The notes beneath the pieces are model-generated. The model searched no databases. It was not told the DNA's origin and saw only the letters and a program-made list of their open reading frames with translations. From Candidatus Gastranaerophilales bacterium (GTDB taxonomy: Bacteria > Cyanobacteriota > Vampirovibrionia > Gastranaerophilales > Gastranaerophilaceae): DNA of 32,399 nt. The position numbers were made by a program, and so were the translations under genes. Where the stretch lies: assembly GCA_947631645.1 (NCBI GenBank), contig CANRMD010000021.1, positions 1-32,399 of the forward strand. Reading direction: 5' to 3'. Positions 1-28,692 of the stretch are shown in pieces. The first letter of the stretch is position 1. Every line of letters begins with the position of its first letter.

Positions 1-3000
1 TGGAATTTATTGTTGAAAATGCCTTTATTATTGTATTTCTTACTTCCTCAGGTTCTATTGAAGTAAAAGGTTTATCAACATTTTCTTTAACAAATTTAAT
101 ATACTCTTCATCTGTCATATTTAGAGCTTCTTTTATCAGATTTGATATGTATTTTCTGTCAGATTCTCTGTAACCGCCGAAAATATAGTCCTGTTTAAAA
201 ATATCCAAGTTTTTACCGCACCCCGAACCCGCGTCGGTTTCTCCGCCGCCGTGCATATATTTTGTCGGAGTATTTAACAGAACCCCTTGTGTCCTAAAGA
301 AACGATATTTACTCTCGGGACGCTCCGCATAGCTTACAGATAATAATGCGTCAGAGTCAGGCAGAGCAAAAGCATCAAACTTTGCAAGCTGATTAGAAAA
401 ATCTAACCCGTGAACAAAAAATTTAATATTTCCTGTATTTACTTCTTCCGTCGATTTTAATTCCCCTTGAACCGAAGAAAGCCCCAAAGCATCAATACCC
501 CTTGATATTGAGCCTTTGGGAAATCCTATTTTTTCCCAGGTGTCATTTTCTACCTCATTATATTTTATTATTATCATTCCGTTTTTATCTTTATATACGC
601 CTTTAAAGTTTGTCGAGCCGTCTGCATTCACTTGTGTAATAGCTTCATTTATTTGGCTTGCTTTTGGTATCGGGGTTACAGGCATTATTGGCTGCGTTTT
701 CTTTAATTCTTGTATATTAGCGTTAATTTCCTTTGAATGTGTTTCAAAGTCATTTTTAAACTTATCATAAAACTCATCATCTTTTTTTACTGATTTAAGG
801 TCTGCAATTGTAAACAATTTTGCCATATCAAACAAATTGTCATATTGAAGGTCAAATGCTACAGATTGTTGTTTTTTCTCAACGGGCAATGTGTATAATG
901 TATTGTTATTTACATAGCCAAGCCATTCATGATGTTTTATCAAGGAATATATTTTAATTTTCTCTTCTTTAGGTAAATTAAGTTTATTAATTATATAGAA
1001 TGCATCAAAAGCACTTTCTTCCGCATGAATTTTATCCGTAAAGCCTTCTGTTTTATTACCGTCATGAAATAAAGCACAAATTAGCATTACTTTTTTATGA
1101 GACTCTGAAAGCTTATCAAATTCGGGGTTTTGTACTATTTTTTGCATAACTTTTAAAGAATGTTTCATTATATCGTATTGATGAGCTCCATGCTGAACTC
1201 TTTCTATTTGTGTTCTCAGCTCGGGGAATGTTCTAACTATGTTATTTAACAATAATTTAATTTGAGAATTATTACACAAAATCTTATTATTCTGAGAAAA
1301 TTTAATGACCTTTTCTCTTAATTCTTCTACAACCGCCTTTGTATTCGGATCTGTAATCTGTGCAAGTTTTTTACCGTTATTTAAATTTACCGGATAACCC
1401 GTAATACTGAATGAGTGTCTGGGGTTATCATCAACTTGGGTTCCTTTTGGATTATGATGAAGTTCAAAACCAAAATAGTCATATACTTTTTGGCGTTCTT
1501 GAGGTGTTAAATCTTTCACTATACTAAAGGCATCTTTTATAAATTCTGACTTAGGATATTCTTGCGAAATTTGAATATTAGCATATTCACTGTCTGACAT
1601 ATTTTTTAAAGTATCAGCTAATGATATCAATGCAGTATTAAATACACTAACTTCTTCTTCTGATAATGTATTTGTCTCAATACCTAAAGACCTTACTAAT
1701 GCCGGCAATAAAGTACAATATTCTTCCTGAGTCTTTGGTAAAAGAGGAAAATATTTTCTAAGCTTTTCACTTATATTAAATAACCCTGTGTTGCTTGCTA
1801 CCAGTTTTCTTAATACATCTTTTTTCTTATTTATGGGAATTTCGTTTATATTTTGTTTATTACAAACATCTTTAAATTGTACGGCACAAACCAATTCATC
1901 AGGAGTTAAAGTTTTTACTATGTCCTTTCCCATTATTCGTTCTAATTGTCTTACGTCTTGTAATGTAATTTTATTTTCTTCATTTATAATCGTAAACAAA
2001 TATTCTTTTGGTATTTCGCCTTCCTTAAATAATTTAATTAATTTTTGTAATTCAGAAATTTTTTCAGAATTATTATTATAAGAATTATATTTATAAATAA
2101 TATTTTTTATTTCTTCATCAGTTAATGTTTTATCAAAACTTTGTATCACATCTATTGCAAATTCTCTTTTTTCTCTGTTAGGGGAGGAAATTAAATTACG
2201 CAAAGTATATTTATCAAACCCGAATGAATTTTGTGCAAACAACATTGCAAATGCTATTTTATCTTTATTAACTAATGATTTTTTAGAATCATTCTCATTG
2301 AAAGCCGAATAATCTTTTGTAGCACAAATTATTTCATGCATATCATTATAAGAATATCTTTTATCTTTTGGAGCTTCCAGCATCTTTTTCATTAATTCGA
2401 CAGTTTCAACTTCCGCTTCTTCAACTGTTTGACAATACTCGTTTATATCTATGTCACTATTTTGAGATAAATCCACTAAATATTTTGCAAAATCTAATTT
2501 AACTTTATCAATTTCGGGTTTGTTAATGTAATCCCATCCTCGATAGTTTATTGTTGCTTGAATAATTTTGCACATTACATCAGGATTGAATCTTTTTTCT
2601 TTTGGCATATCAAGCATTTTATTTATCAATTCTATATTATCTTCTTGAGCAAGGTTAATAATACCTATATAATCTTCTAATTTTATTTCATCTTTTTCAT
2701 ACAAATCTATCAAATGATTTGCTATATCAATTTTTATATCATCAAAAGATGTCTTGAGTATTATATCTGATATCGTATCAGCACTAATTCTCTTATCTCC
2801 TTTAAAGTTTATTAAACGTTGTGCAATACTCTGATTTTTATCATTTAAAGTATATGTTGATAAAATTTGAGATTTTTCTCTATTATCATAATTGTCATTT
2901 TGTTTAATTAATTTTTGAACGAAATCAAATGTTTGGCCCTTTGCCGTAAAAAGTATAGGAGCAATATCTTTTGGTTTAAATCTGTTTTCTGAAGTATCAG

Positions 3001-4027
3001 TTACTAAATCCAAAGCTAAAGATTGATTTTCTTCATTTACATGATAAAGAATATTTACAATTTCATCCGTATTATATTCTTGATTTTGGTTATATAACAG
3101 CTTTTGTGCAACTATTAAATTCTCTTTTTTGAATGTTCTTATTATTTTTGTTAAATCTTCCGCATTATAATTTAAAGTATCATCTGCTAATACTTTTCTG
3201 ACAAAGTCTATTGTATGTTCATTTGTACCTTGTAATATTCCTCCAAATTGACGGGTATTATATTTTGAATTTTTCATTTCAATTAATTCTTGTGCCAAAG
3301 TAACATTCTCCGGAGTTAAAAATCTTAAAATCGATGTTTTATCCTCCTCCGGGAACTTATCCTCAGGTTCATTTAATATTTGTTTTATAACATCTCCCGT
3401 TTCTTTCGTATAAGCAGGCATAATATCCGAAAGCTGTTTTACTCCGTATTTTTTACTATCATCATTTAATAATTCTTTAGCAAAAGGTAAACTATCCTCA
3501 TTTATAGTAATTAAAACCGTAGCAATACTGCATTTATCATCAAAACTAACATTTTTTTCATGCATATATTTAACAAAATCAATAACGTCTTGAGGGTTAT
3601 CAATCAAAAAATCTTTTGATTTCTTCACATATTGTACTAATTCTTCATTTTCTTTTTCTTGAACATCTTCAATTTTTTCACCTAATTCGTTTTCGATAGA
3701 ATCAACATCAGCCCCGATATATAAAAATGCACAAGCCAAAGCAAATTGAAAACCTGTAATGTTTATTAACTTTTTAATTTCGTCTTTATCAGTAATGCCA
3801 AGCAAATTTATTATATTTAATCTGCTTTCCGGCGGAACATCAATCTCGGAGGAATCAATCTTCCCTTTAAAACTGCACGAATTTACCTGTGCCATCCCAT
3901 AGGAAGCTAAAGCATTCAATGAATTTGCTTCAACCGTCTTACTCTCAACAGTTTTTGAGGTTGAATTTTTCTGAATACTTACCTTTTCTTTTACAACAGG
4001 CGAGATATTATTATTATGAATTTCCAA
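1..4027 (-). CDS. Giant repeat protein with central HD domain and unknown C-terminal module (3' end outside window)
   Basis: I translated the minus strand by hand and found one uninterrupted frame from 4027 to the window edge (1342 codons, no stop inside). The upstream stop in frame is at 4051-4049. The most likely start is TTG at 4027, with CGGAG about 7 bases upstream; no ATG lies near the start. Residues 53-55 are FKG, followed by a moderately hydrophobic stretch. About residues 110-560 form roughly twelve 31-36-residue helical repeats, probably an alpha-solenoid. About residues 945-1080 carry an HD-superfamily pattern: KHSLKV, then LFHDGNK (HD at 1061-1066), KHHEW and a late Asp in IADL. 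The last 200 visible residues contain HGLDFSN and HGGGETDAGSGCGK and match no family I can name. It follows recN by 67 bases on the same strand. Known: HD domains are usually metal phosphohydrolases. Substrate and role here are unknown. Confidence 0.85.
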   Translation of the reverse strand, partial: MEIHNNNISPVVKEKVSIQKNSTSKTVESKTVEANSLNALASYGMAQVNSCSFKGKIDSSEIDVPPESRLNIINLLGITDKDEIKKLINITGFQFALACAFLYIGADVDSIENELGEKIEDVQEKENEELVQYVKKSKDFLIDNPQDVIDFVKYMHEKNVSFDDKCSIATVLITINEDSLPFAKELLNDDSKKYGVKQLSDIMPAYTKETGDVIKQILNEPEDKFPEEDKTSILRFLTPENVTLAQELIEMKNSKYNTRQFGGILQGTNEHTIDFVRKVLADDTLNYNAEDLTKIIRTFKKENLIVAQKLLYNQNQEYNTDEIVNILYHVNEENQSLALDLVTDTSENRFKPKDIAPILFTAKGQTFDFVQKLIKQNDNYDNREKSQILSTYTLNDKNQSIAQRLINFKGDKRISADTISDIILKTSFDDIKIDIANHLIDLYEKDEIKLEDYIGIINLAQEDNIELINKMLDMPKEKRFNPDVMCKIIQATINYRGWDYINKPEIDKVKLDFAKYLVDLSQNSDIDINEYCQTVEEAEVETVELMKKMLEAPKDKRYSYNDMHEIICATKDYSAFNENDSKKSLVNKDKIAFAMLFAQNSFGFDKYTLRNLISSPNREKREFAIDVIQSFDKTLTDEEIKNIIYKYNSYNNNSEKISELQKLIKLFKEGEIPKEYLFTIINEENKITLQDVRQLERIMGKDIVKTLTPDELVCAVQFKDVCNKQNINEIPINKKKDVLRKLVASNTGLFNISEKLRKYFPLLPKTQEEYCTLLPALVRSLGIETNTLSEEEVSVFNTALISLADTLKNMSDSEYANIQISQEYPKSEFIKDAFSIVKDLTPQERQKVYDYFGFELHHNPKGTQVDDNPRHSFSITGYPVNLNNGKKLAQITDPNTKAVVEELREKVIKFSQNNKILCNNSQIKLLLNNIVRTFPELRTQIERVQHGAHQYDIMKHSLKVMQKIVQNPEFDKLSESHKKVMLICALFHDGNKTEGFTDKIHAEESAFDAFYIINKLNLPKEEKIKIYSLIKHHEWLGYVNNNTLYTLPVEKKQQSVAFDLQYDNLFDMAKLFTIADLKSVKKDDEFYDKFKNDFETHSKEINANIQELKKTQPIMPVTPIPKASQINEAITQVNADGSTNFKGVYKDKNGMIIIKYNEVENDTWEKIGFPKGSISRGIDALGLSSVQGELKSTEEVNTGNIKFFVHGLDFSNQLAKFDAFALPDSDALLSVSYAERPESKYRFFRTQGVLLNTPTKYMHGGGETDAGSGCGKNLDIFKQDYIFGGYRESDRKYISNLIKEALNMTDEEYIKFVKENVDKPFTSIEPEEVRNTIIKAFSTINS

Positions 4028-20615: not shown

Positions 20616-21536
20616 CTATTTATTTAAAGCGATTGTTCCGCCTACTATTTCAGTTAACTCTTGAGTTATCATCGCTTGACGAGCTTTATTATAATCAATT
20701 GTTAATTTTTGAATCATTTCTTCAGCATTATTACAAGCTGCACTCATAGCCGTCATTCTCGATGCCAACTCACTTGCTATTGATTCTAGCATAGCTTGAA
20801 AAATTATACTTGATATAAATAGAGGAACTAATTCCGATAAAACAGAAGATTGACTCGGCTCAATTTCAAAATCGGTAATTTCTTCCTTTGTATAATCAAA
20901 ATCAATGTCATCAAGCGGAAGAATATCCCATTTTTCTACCGAATACGACATCATATTTCTGAACCGGGTAGTAATAATTTCCATAGAATCAATATCACCG
21001 TTTACAAAAGATTTTGCCATATCCGAAGCTACAAGCCTGGCTTGAGAAGAATTAGGAGTTTCACTAAAGGTTAAATATGTTTGAATAATTTTAAAACCAT
21101 ACTCATCAACTTCACGTTTTAAAGCATTATAACCTTTTTGTCCTATAATAAAGAGTTCACATTTAACACCTCTTTTTCCATATTCTTGAATTGTTCGCAA
21201 GGTATATCTAACGACATTTGCATTAAACGCACCCGACAAACCTTTATTTGAAGTCATAACAAGAATACCGACAGTTTTAATATCCCTTTTTTGTAAGAGT
21301 ATCGGATAATTATTTAACGGTTCTTTGAAGTGAGCCTGTTTAGACTCTATATCCGTTACTGATTTTAAAAGTCTGTAAAACATTTTTTCAAGCTCAAAAG
21401 TAAACGGTCTTGATGCTTTAACTTTGTTTTCAAACTTTTTTACCTTTGCAGATGCAACCATCTTCATTGCACGAGTAATTTTTTGCGTGCTTTTTATTGA
21501 ATTTATTCTTGTTCTTATTTTTTTCAGATTTGCCAT
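20616..21536 (-). CDS. atpG: ATP synthase subunit gamma
   Basis: Central rotor shaft of F1, 306 residues. The N-terminal helix MANLKKIRTRINSIKSTQKI and the C-terminal helix RMTAMSAACNNAEEMIQKL...YNKARQAMITQELTEIVGG are classic. The segment joining PLDDIDFDYTKEEITDFEIEPSQS to LSELVPL is short: the roughly 30-residue insertion typical of gamma from photosynthetic cyanobacteria and chloroplasts is missing. It is the last ATP synthase gene in the operon; beta and epsilon are not nearby. Cyanobacterial papers call this gene atpC. Confidence 0.96.
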   Translation of the reverse strand: MANLKKIRTRINSIKSTQKITRAMKMVASAKVKKFENKVKASRPFTFELEKMFYRLLKSVTDIESKQAHFKEPLNNYPILLQKRDIKTVGILVMTSNKGLSGAFNANVVRYTLRTIQEYGKRGVKCELFIIGQKGYNALKREVDEYGFKIIQTYLTFSETPNSSQARLVASDMAKSFVNGDIDSMEIITTRFRNMMSYSVEKWDILPLDDIDFDYTKEEITDFEIEPSQSSVLSELVPLFISSIIFQAMLESIASELASRMTAMSAACNNAEEMIQKLTIDYNKARQAMITQELTEIVGGTIALNK

Positions 21537-21547
21537 TTTTTTACCGA

Positions 21548-23068
21548 TTATTGTTTAAAGAAATTAGTTTTATAATTATTAAGTTTTTCTTTCAAATTAC
21601 TCATATCTTCATCAGAGAGCTTATCTCCGTCATTAAGTTTTTGAGCCAATTCTTTCATATTAGCATCAAAGAATTCAAACCATCCCGATTTAAAATCTCT
21701 GATTTTAATATTATCAATATCATCTAAAATACCCTCATTAGCAGCAAACAGAATACTGATTTGCTTTGCAACGCTTAAAGGAGCATACTGCGGTTGTTTT
21801 AGGACTTCCGTAAGCTTTTGTCCTCTTGTCAATTGGTCTTTTGTTGCTTTATCAAGGTCGCTTGCAAACTGAGCAAAAGCTTCAAGTTCTCTAAATTGAG
21901 CAAGGTCAAGTCTTAATTTTCCGGCAACTTGTTTAATACCTTTTGTTTGAGCATTACCCCCGACACGAGAAACCGAAATTCCCGCATTAATTGCAGGTCT
22001 AACACCAGAGTTAAATAAGTTAGATTCTAAAAATATTTGACCGTCAGTAATTGATATTACGTTAGTAGGAATATATGCCGAAACATCACCCGCTTGAGTT
22101 TCAATTATAGGCAATGCGGTAATGCTTCCTCCGCCCAATTCATCATTCAATTTACATGCTCTTTCAAGTAACCTTGAATGTAAATAGAATACATCGCCGG
22201 GGTACGCTTCACGTCCTGACGGGCGTTTCAATAACAAACTCATTGCCCTGTATGCCTGAGCATGTTTAGACAAATCATCATATATTATTAAACAATGTTT
22301 TCCTTGCTCCATAAATTCTTCCGCAATTGCACATCCAGCGAATGGTGCTATATATTGCATAGGAGCAGACTCATTAGCCGGAGCCGATACTATTATTGAA
22401 TATTCCATTGCCCCAAAATTTTCCAATGTTTTAGCCAGCTGTGCAACGGTTGAGGTTTTTTGTCCGATTGCCACATATATACAAATAACGTCTTTGCCTT
22501 TTTGGTTAATAATTGTATCAATAGCGATAGCTGTCTTGCCAGTTTGTCTGTCACCGATTATAAGTTCTCTCTGCCCTCTGCCTATAGGAGTTAAAGCATC
22601 TATTGCAGTCAAACCCGTTTGAAGAGGCTGAAATACAGATTTTCTCGTAACAATCCCGGGAGCTACACGTTCTATTGCTCTTGTTTTTTCATAGTGTATA
22701 TCCCCGTTTCCGTCAACAGGTACACCTGTCGGATCAATAATTCTGCCAAGCAGTCCTTCTCCTACAGGAACTGATGCAATTCGTCCCGTAGTTCTAACCG
22801 TCATACCTTCTTTTATTTGAGTATATTCTCCTAATATTACAACCCCGACATTATCTTCTTCAAGGTTTAAAACTATTCCAAGCGTGCCTTTTCCGTCATC
22901 AAATTCTACAAGTTCTGATGACATTGCATCACTTAAACCGTATATTCTTGAAATACCGTCTGCGACTTCTAATACGGTACCTACATTTTTTACCTCGAGT
23001 TTCGACTCATAATTTTGAAGTTTTTCTTTTATTACGGATGTGATTTCATCAGGATTAATTGTTGCCAT
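21548..23068 (-). CDS. atpA: ATP synthase subunit alpha
   Basis: Regulatory nucleotide-binding subunit of F1, 506 residues. The P-loop GDRQTGKT, the [26 protein letters not shown] region and the signature [14 protein letters not shown] are all intact. The C-terminal helical domain is complete. The start overlaps the end of the delta gene by 14 bases. Confidence 0.98.
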
Positions 23069-23627
23069 ATCTGTTTCCCTTTGTTAATTCTTTTTTCATA
23101 TCATCAAATTTTGATTTTAAGCTAAAATCAAGCGTTTTATCTTCTATTTCTATTACTAACCCGCCAATTATATCGGGATTAACCAAATAATCGGGTTTTA
23201 TTGTTTTTAAAAGTTTCTCTTTTAATTTTTCAACTATTTTATTCTTTTGATTTTCATCTAAATCTACTGCCGATATAATTAAAGGCGTTATAATATTATT
23301 AATTTTATTATAAGTTTTTAAATATTGATTTAATGTTTCATCAAGGGCATTAATTCTGTTGTTGTCCAAGAGAAGCAGTATAAAATCGAGTGTAATTTTA
23401 TCAACACGATTATTCAATAATTTTGTCATAATATCTTTTTTATCATTTAAACTTACAACAGGACTGTACAGAAGCGTTGACAATTCGGAGTTTGTATTAA
23501 TTAACTCTTTTACAAAGAATAAATCATCCAAAACATTTTGACACTTATTTGCATCTTTTGCGGTACTTATAAGTGCATTTGAATATGTTCTTGATATTTT
23601 TTTATTTTTTATATCTCCTACTATCAT
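23055..23627 (-). CDS. atpH: ATP synthase subunit delta
   Basis: Peripheral-stalk subunit joining F1 to the b/b' stator, 190 residues. The N-terminal helical domain begins [18 protein letters not shown], and the C-terminal end has [41 protein letters not shown], the conserved delta/OSCP close. It overlaps the b gene by 4 bases (ATGA) and alpha by 14, both signs of translational coupling. Confidence 0.94.
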
Positions 23628-24124
23628 AAATTTATTCTTTCAAGCTCCTTTATAGCTTCATCTATATAAAGATTATGCAGTTCTTTATTTTGGTTCAATT
23701 GTTCAAGGGCGTTATCCCTCGCCAATTCAACCGATTTTTCACTCAATATGTTTATCAATTTTGAATGAAATTTTTTAGTTTCTAAGTTTAAAAGTCTTTG
23801 TGCATTATTTTCAATATCTTTTTTGCGGTCTTCAATTTCAGATGCTATTTTTAGCTCAATATTATTAACGCTTGTTTGTGTATCTTTTTTAATTGCATCA
23901 ATATCTGAGGGGAGTTTATTAACCGCATCTTGAGATTTTACAAGTTCTTTTTTTGCAAGCTCTTTTTCATTTTCCGCATTATCAACGTAAGATTTTATAT
24001 CATTTCTGAGGTTTTCAAGTTTTTGCTTAACATTAAATTTATAAAAAAGAAAAGCTAAAACTCCAGCGACAATAATAAAGTTTAAAGTATTTGATTTTAT
24101 TATAATATCAAAAAATTCAGCCAC
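23624..24124 (-). CDS. atpF: ATP synthase subunit b
   Basis: Stator subunit, 166 residues. A short periplasmic N-terminus and one membrane helix (about 12-29, LNFIIVAGVLAFLFYKF) precede a long, charged coiled coil reaching to the C-terminus. A second stator gene (b') lies immediately upstream, so this F0 probably uses a b/b' heterodimer as in cyanobacteria and chloroplasts. Confidence 0.93.
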   Translation of the reverse strand: MAEFFDIIIKSNTLNFIIVAGVLAFLFYKFNVKQKLENLRNDIKSYVDNAENEKELAKKELVKSQDAVNKLPSDIDAIKKDTQTSVNNIELKIASEIEDRKKDIENNAQRLLNLETKKFHSKLINILSEKSVELARDNALEQLNQNKELHNLYIDEAIKELERINL

Positions 24125-24125
24125 T

Positions 24126-24587
24126 TTAACTCTCCTTTATATCCGATTTATCAATAAAAGAAGAATTTATACTGCTGCCCAAGAGTTTAGAAGAAATATT
24201 TTTGGCTATGTCCACAACATTATCTTTTAAAACTTCTTTAGCAGCTAATGCCGAGTTTTTTAAATCTTCTTTTTCTTTAGCGATATTACCGAAAAGCTCT
24301 TCTTTATATTCACTAACCTTTTGTGCACACTCTTTTTTCAAGGCTTGCGACTTTTGAGCAATAATTTCCTGAGCTTCTTCTCTTGATTTTTGAAGTTCAT
24401 CTTCTCTGTATTTGATGTTTTCTTCCGTTTTTAATTTAACATTTTTTGCCTCAGTATAATTTTGAGCAACAAAATCTTGCCTGTCTTTCATTATTTTCAA
24501 AACAGGAGCATAGAAAATTTTATTCATCAAAAAGACAAATACTATAAAACTGATTGCCGCGAATAAAAAAGTTGCATCAAATTCCAT
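24126..24587 (-). CDS. atpF2: ATP synthase subunit b' (second stator subunit)
   Basis: 153 residues. The N-terminus MEFDATFLFAAISFIVFVFLMNKIFYAPVL matches the FDATL...Q-FxxLxxxLNxxFYKP pattern of b' subunits, and a Glu/Lys-rich coiled coil follows. Called atpG in cyanobacteria. It sits between c and b, exactly the cyanobacterial order. Confidence 0.9.
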   Translation of the reverse strand: MEFDATFLFAAISFIVFVFLMNKIFYAPVLKIMKDRQDFVAQNYTEAKNVKLKTEENIKYREDELQKSREEAQEIIAQKSQALKKECAQKVSEYKEELFGNIAKEKEDLKNSALAAKEVLKDNVVDIAKNISSKLLGSSINSSFIDKSDIKES

Positions 24588-24598
24588 AATTTAATCCG

Positions 24599-24823
24599 TT
24601 ATTTACCGATAAGCATAAAGGCGATAAGTAAACCATAAATACCGCAAGCTTCGGCAAGAGCTGCACCAATAATGAAGAAACCTACAAGTTTACCCGATGC
24701 TTCAGGCTGTCTTGCAATACCTTCCATTAAACCTTTAGTGGCAATACCAAGCCCGAGCCCCGCTCCAAGCCCTGCCAATCCTATAGCCAACCCTGCTCCT
24801 AATGTTGCTAATTCAGTTGCCAT
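24599..24823 (-). CDS. atpE: ATP synthase subunit c
   Basis: 74-residue rotor-ring hairpin: a Gly/Ala-rich helix 1, the polar loop ARQPE (about 37-41) and helix 2 with the ion-carrying Glu58. The residues that complete a sodium site (Gln in helix 1, Ser/Thr after the Glu) are Leu and Ala here, so the ring most likely carries protons. The leader RBS AAAGGAG precedes the ATG. Confidence 0.97.
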   Translation of the reverse strand: MATELATLGAGLAIGLAGLGAGLGLGIATKGLMEGIARQPEASGKLVGFFIIGAALAEACGIYGLLIAFMLIGK

Positions 24824-24839
24824 TTTATTCTCCTTTCGA

Positions 24840-25514
24840 TTAATGTTCTTCCGATACCGATGTCAATATATACGCAATTGTAAGCATCATAAATACAAAT
24901 GCTTGCAAGAATGCTACAAATATTTCAAAAAACATAACCGGTATAGGTGCCGCTATTGCCGAAATTCCAAGCATAACCGATACCAATATTTCGCCCGCTA
25001 AAATATTTGCAAAAAGACGGACTGCCAAGCTTAACGGTCTTGTAATCATTTCTAATAAATCAACCAACGTTGTTATTATACCCGTAATACTTAACCCGTG
25101 ATAAATATACTTAATACCCTTTGCCTTAAAACCTTGATACAAATAATAAATCAAAACAATAACAGCCATTGCTGCAGTCATATTAATATCATTTGTAGGA
25201 GAGGCAACTTCTCCCTGTTTTAACTGTATAAGTCTTAAAGGTAATTGCCCCATTAAGTTTGCAACAAGTATAAACAAAAACAAAGATGCAACAATAGGTA
25301 TATGTTTTTCGCCGTTTTTTATTTCAGCTAAGTTACCCAAAAAGAATTTTATTATGCTTTCTGCGGCTGCTTGCATCTTTGACGGTATTATCTCAAGCTT
25401 TCTTGTCAATATAAAAGCAGCCAACAATACAAACGCCATTGCACACCACATTGTTAATAATGTGTCAAAATGTACATGAAAGCTGCCAATATACCCTACC
25501 CAGTGTTCGCCCAT
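24840..25514 (-). CDS. atpB: ATP synthase subunit a
   Basis: Membrane stator channel of F0, 224 residues with about five or six membrane helices. The helix with PLSLAVRLFANILAGEI carries the essential Arg that faces the c-ring Glu. The last helices read FEIFVAFLQAFVFMMLTIAYI. It is the first gene of the operon in this window; no atpI lies ahead of it. AAGGA is 8 bases before the ATG. Confidence 0.96.
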   Translation of the reverse strand: MGEHWVGYIGSFHVHFDTLLTMWCAMAFVLLAAFILTRKLEIIPSKMQAAAESIIKFFLGNLAEIKNGEKHIPIVASLFLFILVANLMGQLPLRLIQLKQGEVASPTNDINMTAAMAVIVLIYYLYQGFKAKGIKYIYHGLSITGIITTLVDLLEMITRPLSLAVRLFANILAGEILVSVMLGISAIAAPIPVMFFEIFVAFLQAFVFMMLTIAYILTSVSEEH

Positions 25515-25635: not shown

Positions 25636-25667
25636 AATATACCCACTTTAGGGAAGGAATGTTTATT

Positions 25668-26123
25668 ATGAAAGTTAATGCAATCAGACTTAATAATTTT
25701 AATACTGTAGTTTTCGGTTCTCAAAAAAATGATAAAAGAGAATCAAACAAGCATCTTTGTGACAATTGCACAAAATTAAAATTAGGTTTATGTGCCCTCG
25801 GTGTACTTGGTGCCGCAGCAGTCGGGTATGGTGTATTAAAAAAACACAATATCAATTCTTTCAGTGAAATAAAAAATTCTCTGAGTGACGTTAAAAATAT
25901 TTTTTCAAACAAGCCTCCGATTGATAAAATAACAAGAAAGTTAAACGGAAAACGTGATAAGGAAGCTGTTAAAATCTACCAAAATATTATGGCGAAAGAA
26001 AAATTAGCATCTTTACAGAATAAAATTTTAAACGGTGATTTTGACGGTAAATCAAAAAAAGTCTTTGAACATATAAGAAATAATGAAAGATTATTACAAC
26101 AACAAGCAAGCTTTGCTATCTGA
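25668..26123 (+). CDS. Small FG-motif single-span membrane protein
   Basis: 151 residues from ATG 25668. GGGAAGGA lies 9 bases before this ATG but directly touches the one at 25659, so the second is chosen. I do not recognise a family. Visible features: N-terminal VVFGS (FG at 16-17), a charged linker with a CxxC pair (C31, C34), one membrane helix (about 38-57, ending in KK), then a charged helical tail. The same order (FG motif, basic linker, helix ending in KK, 'SxIK') occurs in the protein at 28078-28692. The 3' end overlaps hydE by 41 bases in another frame. Confidence 0.7.
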   Translation: MKVNAIRLNNFNTVVFGSQKNDKRESNKHLCDNCTKLKLGLCALGVLGAAAVGYGVLKKHNINSFSEIKNSLSDVKNIFSNKPPIDKITRKLNGKRDKEAVKIYQNIMAKEKLASLQNKILNGDFDGKSKKVFEHIRNNERLLQQQASFAI

Positions 26124-27138
26124 AATCATTAATAAAGCGGAAAATGAGCGTATTCTTAATAAAGAAGAAATCATTGCATTATTAAATTCTGACGGCAATT
26201 TATTATGCGAAAGTGCTGATAAAATAAGGAAAAAATATAAAGGTGATTTTGTTCATCTTAGAGGTTTAATTGAATTTTCTAATATTTGTCGTTGTAATTG
26301 CTTTTATTGCGGACTGAGAGCCGAAAATAAAAAGCTTGATAGATACAGATTAAAAGAAAATGAAATACTGCAATGTGTAAAATTTGCAGTTAATTCAGGA
26401 TACAAAACAGTTGTACTTCAAAGCGGAGAAGACTTGTATTGGACAAGCGAAAAGTTATGCACACTTATAAAAGAAATAAAAAAGCATGATATTGCCGTGA
26501 CTTTAAGTATCGGAGAAAGAAGTTTTGAAGAATATCAGGCATATAAAAATGCGGGAGCTGACAGGTTTCTTTTAAGAATAGAAACGACTGACAAAAATCT
26601 TTATAAGCATCTCCACCCTGATATGAGTTTTGAAAACAGAATACAGTGTCTTAAAAATCTTAAAAAACTCGGATATGAAACAGGAACAGGATGTTTAGTC
26701 GGATTGCCGAACCAAACAATTGAATCTTTAGCAGATGATATTATATTTTTTAAAGAACTTGATGCCGATATGGTTGGTATCGGGCCTTTAATCCCTCATC
26801 CTGACACGCCGTTAGCAAACGCAAATAAAGATAATTTTGATATGGCATTAAAAGTTATGGCTATAGTTCGGCTTTTAATGCCCGATATTAACATTCCTGC
26901 AACCACGGCAATGGAAAGTATCAGGCAAAACGGCAGAATTATTGCCTTAAACTCGGGGGCAAATGTTGTAATGCCAAATATGACACAGGGCGAATATCGA
27001 AAAAAATACGAAATTTATCCGAATAAAATCTGCATAAATGACTCGCCCGAGAAATGTATAAACTGCATTAAATCAAAAATAGAAAGTATCGGAAGAAAAA
27101 TATCAGAAACAAAAGGATACAGAAAAGACGCCCGATAA
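26083..27138 (+). CDS. hydE: [FeFe]-hydrogenase H-cluster maturase HydE
   Basis: Radical SAM enzyme that, with HydF and HydG, builds the diiron subcluster of [FeFe]-hydrogenase. 351 residues. GLIEFSNICRCNCFYCGLR holds the Cx3Cx2C motif typical of HydE and biotin-synthase-like enzymes; VLQSGED, the GPLIPHPDTPLA loop and MPNMT are HydE hallmarks. The C-terminal C-x7-C-x2-C set (in ICINDSPEKCINC) matches the accessory cluster site of Thermotoga HydE. No hydF, hydG or hydrogenase gene is in the window. The ATG at 26083 lies inside the upstream gene and has no clear ribosome site, suggesting coupling. The stop codon is in the loop of the hairpin at 27124-27149. Confidence 0.94.
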   Translation: MKDYYNNKQALLSEIINKAENERILNKEEIIALLNSDGNLLCESADKIRKKYKGDFVHLRGLIEFSNICRCNCFYCGLRAENKKLDRYRLKENEILQCVKFAVNSGYKTVVLQSGEDLYWTSEKLCTLIKEIKKHDIAVTLSIGERSFEEYQAYKNAGADRFLLRIETTDKNLYKHLHPDMSFENRIQCLKNLKKLGYETGTGCLVGLPNQTIESLADDIIFFKELDADMVGIGPLIPHPDTPLANANKDNFDMALKVMAIVRLLMPDINIPATTAMESIRQNGRIIALNSGANVVMPNMTQGEYRKKYEIYPNKICINDSPEKCINCIKSKIESIGRKISETKGYRKDAR

Positions 27139-28077: not shown

Positions 28078-28692
28078 TTATTGGATTTTTATACTTTTAT
28101 CGGGATTTATTGTTATAAATTGTCGTTTGATGCAATCACCAATGGTTATAGTTCCATCTTCTGCATAATCGTATGTTTTAAGCAATTTAAGAAACGGAGA
28201 ACCATCATAATGATTAAAATAATGATTAGTTACATCTTCTTGTACACTGCTTAATAAACCGTTTTCATAGTTAACAAGTTTAATTCGTCCGTCTTTACCA
28301 ACATTTTTTATTACCCCTGAAAATCCTTTACCGTCAATTAAGGCTTTGCCTTTATCAAAGGTACCGATTTTCTTAAAATCGTCAAAAGAATTAAAATGAT
28401 TTTTTGCTGCATTATTTACATCGTCTGCCGAGTTTTTTATGGCATTACCTATATCATCAGCTGACTCTTTTATTGCATCCTTAATCTGCGAATTATTTAA
28501 TTTTCCTTTTTTTACGGCAATAACAACACCTGCCGTTACGGCTCCTGCAACTGCTAAAGCCCCAAGAGCCAAGGCTAACTTTTTCTTTCCGTCTTTTATT
28601 TGTGCGGGTGTCTTTTTAGTTTTTACAGGTTGAGTATTTGCCCTTTCACCGAAAGATACATTCATCTTCCCGCTTACTTTTTCTACTGACAT
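28078..28692 (-). CDS. FG-motif single-span membrane protein
   Basis: 204 residues, no recognised family. N-terminal NVSFGE (FG at 14-15), a Lys-rich linker, one Ala/Gly/Val-rich membrane helix (about 39-60, ending in KK), an amphipathic repeat (IKESADDIGNAIKNSADDVNNAAKN), and a C-terminal beta-rich part reminiscent of MORN-like 'YxxGxLxSxxxD' turns (NYENGLLSSVQEDV, YAEDGTITIGD). The layout matches the protein at 25668. AAAGGA is 6 bases before the ATG. It is divergent from the XRE regulator and may be its target (inference). Confidence 0.75.
   Translation of the reverse strand: MSVEKVSGKMNVSFGERANTQPVKTKKTPAQIKDGKKKLALALGALAVAGAVTAGVVIAVKKGKLNNSQIKDAIKESADDIGNAIKNSADDVNNAAKNHFNSFDDFKKIGTFDKGKALIDGKGFSGVIKNVGKDGRIKLVNYENGLLSSVQEDVTNHYFNHYDGSPFLKLLKTYDYAEDGTITIGDCIKRQFITINPDKSIKIQ

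What the first reader, a model, noticed from the sequence alone, without database searches (positions are those of the whole stretch)
1..4027. Giant HD-domain repeat protein with TTG start, hidden by the window edge
One open frame of 1342 codons runs from 4027 off the left edge; the leftover base count agrees with an unbroken frame. It joins an N-terminal FKG motif, a helical solenoid, an HD phosphohydrolase-like domain and an unrecognised C-terminal module. I know no described protein with this combination. A nucleotide- or phosphoester-acting enzyme on a large binding scaffold is one reading.
Basis: partly seen in the sequence, partly recalled or inferred. Interest (0 to 1): 0.75.

Follow-up and report, generated by a model that had tools for sequence, protein, structure and literature searches.

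The report
HD plus ADP-ribosyltransferase-like repeat protein
A gut bacterium of the cyanobacterial sister order Gastranaerophilales carries a very large protein that joins a fast-changing binding scaffold to two predicted enzymes, a phosphohydrolase and an ADP-ribosyltransferase-like domain, and it is one of a large, uncharacterised, mix-and-match set of probable effector proteins in these bacteria.

Summary
The 1342-codon TTG-started frame is real. The 'window edge' is the end of the assembled contig, and a 60%-identical relative of 1400 aa shows that only about 60 aa are missing. The HD domain is confirmed: its ligand positions are kept in 59-60 of 60 aligned relatives, and the AlphaFold model (pLDDT 90) matches the HD region of solved tRNA-processing enzymes (Z 17.6). 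The 'unrecognised C-terminal module' is most likely an ADP-ribosyltransferase-like (ART) domain. Folded alone (pLDDT 90), every solved structure scoring Z>=2 was an ART-fold enzyme (CteC 5.9, Tpt1 3.4, DarT 2.9), and it has an invariant H...SxS-Y...E pattern plus a CteC-like four-helix insertion. The N-terminal half is a diversifying 31/35/39-aa repeat array. The family is confined, as far as searched, to Gastranaerophilales, is multi-copy and often tandem. Its N-terminal modules recur on proteins ending in other effector-type domains (an ADP-ribosylating exoenzyme, PRTase-CE, weakly calpain-like and zincin-like domains), and no conserved immunity-like neighbour was seen. Best reading: a polymorphic secreted-effector family in which a solenoid aims an HD+ART pair. 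Target, secretion route and chemistry are untested. New variant of a known kind.

The parts
2..4027 (-). HD-ART repeat protein, TTG start, 3' end cut off by the contig end (1342 of about 1400 aa)
   Evidence: SD-like GGAG and TTG conserved in L031
3857..4027 (-). N-terminal leader, residues 1-57, pattern SL(D/N)ALxxYGxAQVNxxSFKG; also present on proteins without HD-ART
   Evidence: alignment A5, genus search, non-HD-ART carriers, one ending in PF03496
2048..3580 (-). repeat array, about residues 150-660, period 31/62 aa, predicted helical solenoid; diverges fast between relatives
   Evidence: autocorrelation 62/31; identity 44% here against 71-79% in the C-terminal parts for the closest relative, 13-25% against 51-84% for most others
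1223..1885 (-). conserved neck region, residues 715-935 (NINEI...), helices and a small sheet in front of the HD domain
   Evidence: model m41746c1c51e0; conservation
773..1180 (-). HD phosphohydrolase-like domain; ligand residues H956, H988-D989, H1001, H1033, D1076
   Evidence: residues; PF01966 in 49 of 60 relatives at E<=0.1, best 2.6e-5; VIA Z 17.6 to 3wfo
2..700 (-). ADP-ribosyltransferase-like domain (233 of about 293 aa): H1206, S1230/S1232, Y1233, R1245, D1265, K1272, R1291; the expected catalytic Glu lies about 11 residues beyond the contig end
   Evidence: model mb39bf82f78ce, VIA rows all ART fold, conservation, CteC residues from PMC10810742
4095..5747 (-). recN-like gene directly upstream; same neighbour in L051-L053 and L056
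   Evidence: RecN by recognition of the sequence

Best explanation
The gene encodes a multidomain effector-type protein. A short N-terminal leader and a rapidly diversifying helical repeat array (inferred: target binding or positioning) carry a constant catalytic end made of a metal-dependent HD phosphohydrolase-like domain and an ADP-ribosyltransferase-like domain. Most likely the ART domain transfers ADP-ribose from NAD+ to a macromolecule recruited by the solenoid and/or the four-helix insertion, while the HD domain hydrolyses a related phosphoester (for example the ADP-ribose pyrophosphate, or a nucleotide). Shown here: open frame, family, HD fold and ligands, repeat array, predicted ART-like fold and conserved active-site-like residues, shared N-terminal modules with other effector-type proteins, no conserved immunity-like neighbour. 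Inferred: catalysis, secretion, target in a eukaryotic host cell or another microbe.
For: HD: ligand positions invariant in 59-60 of 60, PF01966 in relatives, Foldseek top ranks and VIA Z 17.6. ART: domain predicted at pLDDT 90.4, pTM 0.89; of 352 chains re-aligned the only entries with Z>=2 are CteC, Tpt1 and DarT. H96, S120, Y123, G159, K162, R181, K189 invariant in 78 of 78 and E243 in 77 of 77 ungapped; H and E, and mostly SxS, persist even in remote and stand-alone copies. Four helices lie between the fourth and fifth core strands, as in CteC, with spacings S-R-D-E 15/20/88 against 16/21/86 in CteC. Effector-like organisation: the leader also occurs on a 292-aa protein ending in PF03496 ADP-ribosylating exoenzyme (23.5 bits, cut-off 23.4); a roughly 550-aa core of the giant members also occurs on a protein ending in PRTase-CE (28.9, cut-off 27) and, with scores below cut-off, on calpain-like and M90-like proteases. 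Repeat arrays vary far faster than the catalytic end. The only recurrent downstream neighbour is a tandem paralogue. No PADLOC match.
Against: Foldseek alone gave no significant hit for the ART domain (best E 0.4), and VIA Z 5.9 is below the level at which a match is safe by itself. No Pfam, NCBIfam or PDB sequence match for it. First motif residue is H, not the R of CteC. The window's own copy lacks the Glu because the contig ends. No signal peptide was evident and no VirB4 or contractile-sheath genes were found in five genomes, so a secretion route is unknown. ART and HD modules also occur apart, so they need not act on one substrate.
Confidence: 0.55

Rival explanations
1. SidE-like two-step enzyme: the ART domain ADP-ribosylates a carrier (for instance ubiquitin or another small protein) and the HD domain cleaves the ADP-ribose pyrophosphate to leave or transfer a phosphoribosyl link, as the PDE and mART domains of Legionella SidE do.
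For: Same order of a phosphodiesterase-type helical domain followed by an ART on one chain (SidE layout from PMC8605245); HD ligands intact in 59 of 60 fused copies; best structural neighbour of the ART is the ubiquitin-modifying CteC, with a helical insertion at the same place.
Against: SidE PDE uses a His-Glu-His site and a phospho-histidine intermediate, whereas this HD domain has the metal-ligand pattern; one relative (L102/L045) has lost the HD motif but keeps the ART; separate HD and ART genes exist; no ubiquitin binding tested.
Confidence: 0.12
2. RNA end repair or tRNA-directed enzyme: HD domain opens or removes terminal phosphates as in tRNA nucleotidyltransferases, and the ART-like domain removes 2'-phosphate with NAD+ as Tpt1/KptA does.
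For: Closest HD structures are tRNA-processing enzymes (Z 17.6); Tpt1 is among the few structural neighbours of the C-terminal domain (Z 3.4).
Against: Conserved H-S-E pattern with an invariant Glu fits ADP-ribosyltransferases better (Tpt1 residue pattern from own knowledge); no nucleotidyltransferase domain; hypervariable scaffold, multi-copy expansion and sharing of leaders with exoenzyme, PRTase-CE and protease-like proteins do not fit a housekeeping RNA role.
Confidence: 0.1
3. Intracellular anti-phage defence or toxin-antitoxin protein whose solenoid senses an invader and whose HD/ART end depletes NAD+ or modifies nucleic acid.
For: DarT, a DNA-modifying ART toxin, is among the structural neighbours; fast-evolving repeats suit a sensor.
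Against: No PADLOC model; no conserved partner or antitoxin gene beside it; no match in 50,697 phage records, and one IMG/VR contig only.
Confidence: 0.13
4. Ordinary HD-domain giant protein in which the C-terminal domain is an unrelated non-catalytic binding module.
For: No sequence-level assignment of the C-terminal domain.
Against: Clustered invariant polar residues (H, S, Y, K, R, E) typical of an active site and only ART-fold rows in the structural second look.
Confidence: 0.1

Closest known systems
CteC, Chromobacterium violaceum ubiquitin Thr66 mono-ADP-ribosyltransferase (PDB 8htc, 8ux2; PMC10810742)
   Same: Best structural neighbour of the C-terminal domain; four-helix insertion between beta4 and beta5; similar spacing of Ser, Arg, Asp, Glu
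   Different: No detectable sequence similarity; first motif residue His instead of Arg; CteC is a small effector without HD domain or repeats
Legionella SidE family (PDE + mART on one chain)
   Same: A phosphodiesterase-type helical domain followed by an ART domain in one large protein
   Different: Different PDE active site (His-Glu-His), DUB domain in SidE, no 31/35/39-aa repeat array known there
HD region of the tRNA-processing enzymes 3wfo-3wfs (to my knowledge an A-adding tRNA nucleotidyltransferase)
   Same: HD region fold, Z 17.6 over 194 residues, 17% identity
   Different: The nucleotidyltransferase head is absent here; multi-domain context differs entirely
Polymorphic toxin systems (PMC3482391)
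   Same: Shared N-terminal modules joined to different C-terminal enzymatic domains, tandem paralogues, repeats
   Different: No conserved downstream immunity gene seen; in this family the catalytic end is the constant part

Membership tests
HD superfamily (PF01966) | H...HD...D metal-ligand pattern | tested here: met
   H956, H988-D989, D1076, plus H1001 and H1033, kept in 59-60 of 60 aligned relatives
HD superfamily (PF01966) | HD fold | tested here: met
   Model pLDDT 89.9; VIA Z 17.6 (rmsd 3.5 A over 194) to 3wfo, Z about 11 to PPX/GppA, about 10 to PDEs
HD superfamily (PF01966) | Score of the window protein above the Pfam cut-off | tested here: not met
   No PF01966 row for P0001 at E<=1; 49 of 60 relatives match at E<=0.1, best 2.6e-5
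HD superfamily (PF01966) | Metal binding and phosphohydrolase activity | not testable with these tools
   Needs purified protein
ADP-ribosyltransferase (ART) superfamily | ART fold | tested here: inconclusive
   Only ART-fold entries reach Z>=2, best 5.9 over 144 residues; Foldseek not significant
ADP-ribosyltransferase (ART) superfamily | H/R - S/T/Y - E active-site triad | tested here: inconclusive
   Invariant H, SxS/T-Y and E in relatives fit by order and spacing, but no residue-level superposition was possible; the Glu position is beyond the contig end in the window's copy
ADP-ribosyltransferase (ART) superfamily | NAD+ binding or transfer | not testable with these tools
   Needs biochemistry
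CteC family | R-S-E motif with Arg first | tested here: not met
   His in 78 of 78 at the corresponding place by order and spacing
CteC family | Four-helix insertion between beta4 and beta5 | tested here: met
   Helices 164-171, 178-192, 196-206, 217-228 between strands 148-151 and 244-246 of the model against PMC10810742
CteC family | Sequence homology | tested here: not met
   Profile A3 finds no PDB chain at E<=10, although CteC entries are in the PDB
SidE family | PDE with His-Glu-His catalytic residues | tested here: inconclusive
   The pattern found is that of a metal-binding HD domain; no structural superposition on SidE was made
SidE family | Phosphoribosyl transfer of ubiquitin | not testable with these tools
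   Needs biochemistry
tRNA nucleotidyltransferase | Class II nucleotidyltransferase head domain | tested here: not met
   No poly(A) polymerase head family in P0001 at E<=1; the structural match covers chain residues 217-448 only
Polymorphic toxin | N-terminal module shared with different C-terminal effector domains | tested here: met
Polymorphic toxin | Adjacent immunity gene | tested here: not met
   83 ART genes: no recurrent downstream gene except a paralogue
Polymorphic toxin | Secretion route | tested here: inconclusive
   VirB4 and contractile sheath not found in five genomes, one secretin present in each; other routes not tested

The most novel reading that the evidence does not exclude
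The HD and ART domains work in sequence on one substrate, as a convergently built counterpart of Legionella SidE: the ART attaches ADP-ribose to a carrier and the HD domain trims or transfers it as phosphoribose, with the diversifying solenoid choosing the target, in abundant gut commensals rather than a known pathogen.
Probability: 0.1. Interest if true: 0.9.

Novelty: new variant of a known kind. Interest (0 to 1): 0.6.

Why it matters
Gastranaerophilales are common, mostly uncultured gut bacteria of the cyanobacterial lineage. A multi-copy family of large effector-type proteins with a diversifying scaffold, an HD domain and an ART-like domain, sharing leaders with other enzyme-bearing giants, would mean that these supposed quiet fermenters carry an arsenal for acting on host or microbial cells. 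The HD-ART fusion also makes a concrete biochemical question testable: whether ADP-ribose transfer and phosphoester cleavage are coupled outside Legionella.

Tried and rejected
FKG as a general secretion motif: a first count showed FKG as the most N-terminally enriched tripeptide, but that set was dominated by this family; with family members removed the loose motif is near background and in 432 kb of the own genome there is no clear excess. Defence system: no PADLOC match. Phage origin: no match in phage records, one IMG/VR contig. Sequence routes to the C-terminal domain: Pfam, NCBIfam, PDB sequences, BFVD and Foldseek all gave nothing convincing; weak rows such as enterotoxins (E 0.4, TM 0.17) and the PHROG flavodoxin row (E 0.001) were discarded as chance. 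The structural second look only re-ranks Foldseek's own candidates, so other folds are not excluded. Rest of the gene in the own genome: not found. A few calls failed on coordinates or files.
Full report
What is there. The frame 4027..2 on the minus strand is open for 1342 codons. It starts at TTG with a GGAG box 7 nt upstream; both are conserved in the relative L031. The window is an entire contig of a 1.87-Mb, 77-contig draft genome, so the frame is cut by an assembly break. The nearest full-length relative (L031 = L051; rabbit-gut Gastranaerophilales assembly) has 1400 aa and 60% identity over the whole length, so about 60 aa are missing here. Contigs of several relatives also end inside this gene or its tandem copy, which suggests that conserved ends of paralogues break assemblies (inference).

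Family. In the genus 35 of 41 genomes have a match, one with 13. In the order 113 of 192 sampled genomes match a profile of the C-terminal half, and across a phylum sample the C-terminal domain was found only in the window's own family. A scan of about 85,000 species genomes returned 79 loci, nearly all labelled Gastranaerophilales or unclassified gut MAGs from rabbit, deer, goat, horse and rumen. Members run from about 820 to more than 6,200 aa. Tandem copies are frequent and recN is the upstream neighbour in the window and in L051-L053 and L056.

HD domain. Residues H956, H988-D989, H1001, H1033 and D1076 form the HD ligand pattern; in 60 aligned relatives these positions are kept in 59 or 60. 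PF01966 matches 49 of 60 relatives at E<=0.1, best 2.6e-5, though not the window protein itself. An AlphaFold model of the C-terminal half of L051 with 60 sequences has mean pLDDT 89.9; the HD part matches solved tRNA-processing enzymes 3wfo-3wfs at Z 17.6 (194 residues, 3.5 A), then PPX/GppA and cyclic-nucleotide PDEs at Z 9-11. The nucleotidyltransferase head of the former is absent.

C-terminal domain. Sequence searches are blank. Folded alone with 78 sequences it gives pLDDT 90.4 and pTM 0.89. Foldseek finds nothing significant, but in the VIA second look the only nine entries of 352 chains listed at Z>=2 are all ADP-ribosyltransferase-fold enzymes: CteC (5.3-5.9), yeast Tpt1 (3.4) and DarT (2.8-2.9). 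Z is modest, so this is a lead supported by three further points. First, residues expected of an active site are invariant: H96, S120, Y123, K162, R181, K189 in 78 of 78 and E243 in 77 of 77 ungapped (numbering of L051 5832-6710; window H1206, S1230, Y1233, K1272, R1291; the Glu would lie about 11 residues past the contig end). H and E, mostly with SxS, persist in remote and stand-alone copies. Second, the model has four helices between the fourth and fifth core strands, where CteC has its ubiquitin-recruiting four-helix insertion. Third, the spacing Ser-Arg-Asp-Glu is 15/20/88 here against 16/21/86 for S97-R113-D134-E220 of CteC (assignment by spacing, not by superposition). The first triad residue is His instead of Arg, so this is not a CteC family member by the tests made.

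N-terminal half. The window protein has a 31/62-aa periodicity; relatives have 31-, 34-, 35- or 35/39-aa units, some nearly identical within one protein with variability concentrated at a few positions. Identity to the closest relative is 44% in the array against 71-79% in the C-terminal parts; for most others 13-25% against 51-84%. One relative has an enlarged array. This is the pattern of a diversifying binding scaffold (inference).

Modular context. The leader with SL(D/N)ALxxYGxAQVN..SFKG also starts proteins that lack HD-ART, including one of 292 aa ending in Pfam ADPrib_exo_Tox (23.5 bits, cut-off 23.4) and others with unassigned C-termini. A core of about 550 aa with glycine-rich hydrophobic stretches, present in giant HD-ART members, also occurs on proteins ending in PRTase-CE (28.9 bits, cut-off 27) or, below cut-off, calpain-like and M90-like domains; HExxH motifs occur in several. 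Among 83 genes with the ART domain no downstream gene recurs except a paralogue, so an immunity gene, expected for a self-intoxicating antibacterial toxin, was not seen. VirB4 and contractile-sheath genes were not found in five genomes; each has one secretin. The route out of the cell is open.

Mechanism. Most likely the solenoid positions the protein on a target, the ART-like domain transfers ADP-ribose from NAD+, and the HD domain cleaves a phosphoester. Whether the two act in sequence is unknown. The layout recalls SidE (PMC8605245), but the HD site has metal-ligand residues rather than the SidE His-Glu-His, one relative has lost the HD motif while keeping the ART, and the two modules also occur apart. 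Rivals (SidE-like coupling, RNA end repair, defence) are listed with their tests.

Novelty. In the paper library no work joins Melainabacteria with ADP-ribosyltransferases except an unrelated sirtuin review, and a search for HD domain with ADP-ribosyltransferase fusions gave no such protein among the titles and abstracts listed. The parts are known folds; the combination, the diversifying scaffold and the lineage are new to me.

Noticed in passing
L177 930-1808 (-): 292-aa protein with the same SLxAL..A leader as the window protein, ending in a Pfam ADP-ribosylating exoenzyme domain (PF03496, just above cut-off).
   Followed up: partly
L187 1041-5957 (+), L184, L182, L180, L185: Giant Gastranaerophilales proteins sharing a roughly 550-aa core with HD-ART giants but ending in PRTase-CE, calpain-like or HExxH zincin-like domains: a wider mix-and-match effector set.
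   Followed up: partly
L172 493-2271 (+), L173 877-2646 (-): Leader-bearing proteins whose C-termini resemble a degenerate protein-kinase glycine loop and lysine (GTFGTVYQ...ALKIFH); Pfam gives no match.
   Followed up: no
L170 513-3071 (-), L171 421-2979 (+), L174 484-3393 (-): Leader-bearing proteins of about 850-970 aa with a shared C-terminal domain of unknown kind (conserved CC and FN..EL stretches).
   Followed up: no
L130 1943-3238, L131 1631-2926, L132 2332-3687: Stand-alone ART-like proteins of about 430-450 aa without HD domain, with a conserved helical-looking N-terminal half.
   Followed up: partly
L045 6425-9181 (= L102): Relative that has lost the HD motif (HD to GN, H to Q) but keeps the ART pattern.
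   Followed up: partly
L190 (IMG/VR 3300011989_000363): A contig filed as viral carries a 66%-identical ART domain; it may be a mis-binned bacterial contig or a mobile copy.
   Followed up: no
window 25659-26123 and 28078-28692: Small proteins with an N-terminal VxFG-type stretch followed by one hydrophobic segment; function unknown.
   Followed up: no
window 20616-25514: F-type ATP synthase operon, followed on the plus strand by a HydE-like radical-SAM gene (26083-27138); assigned by recognition only.
   Followed up: no
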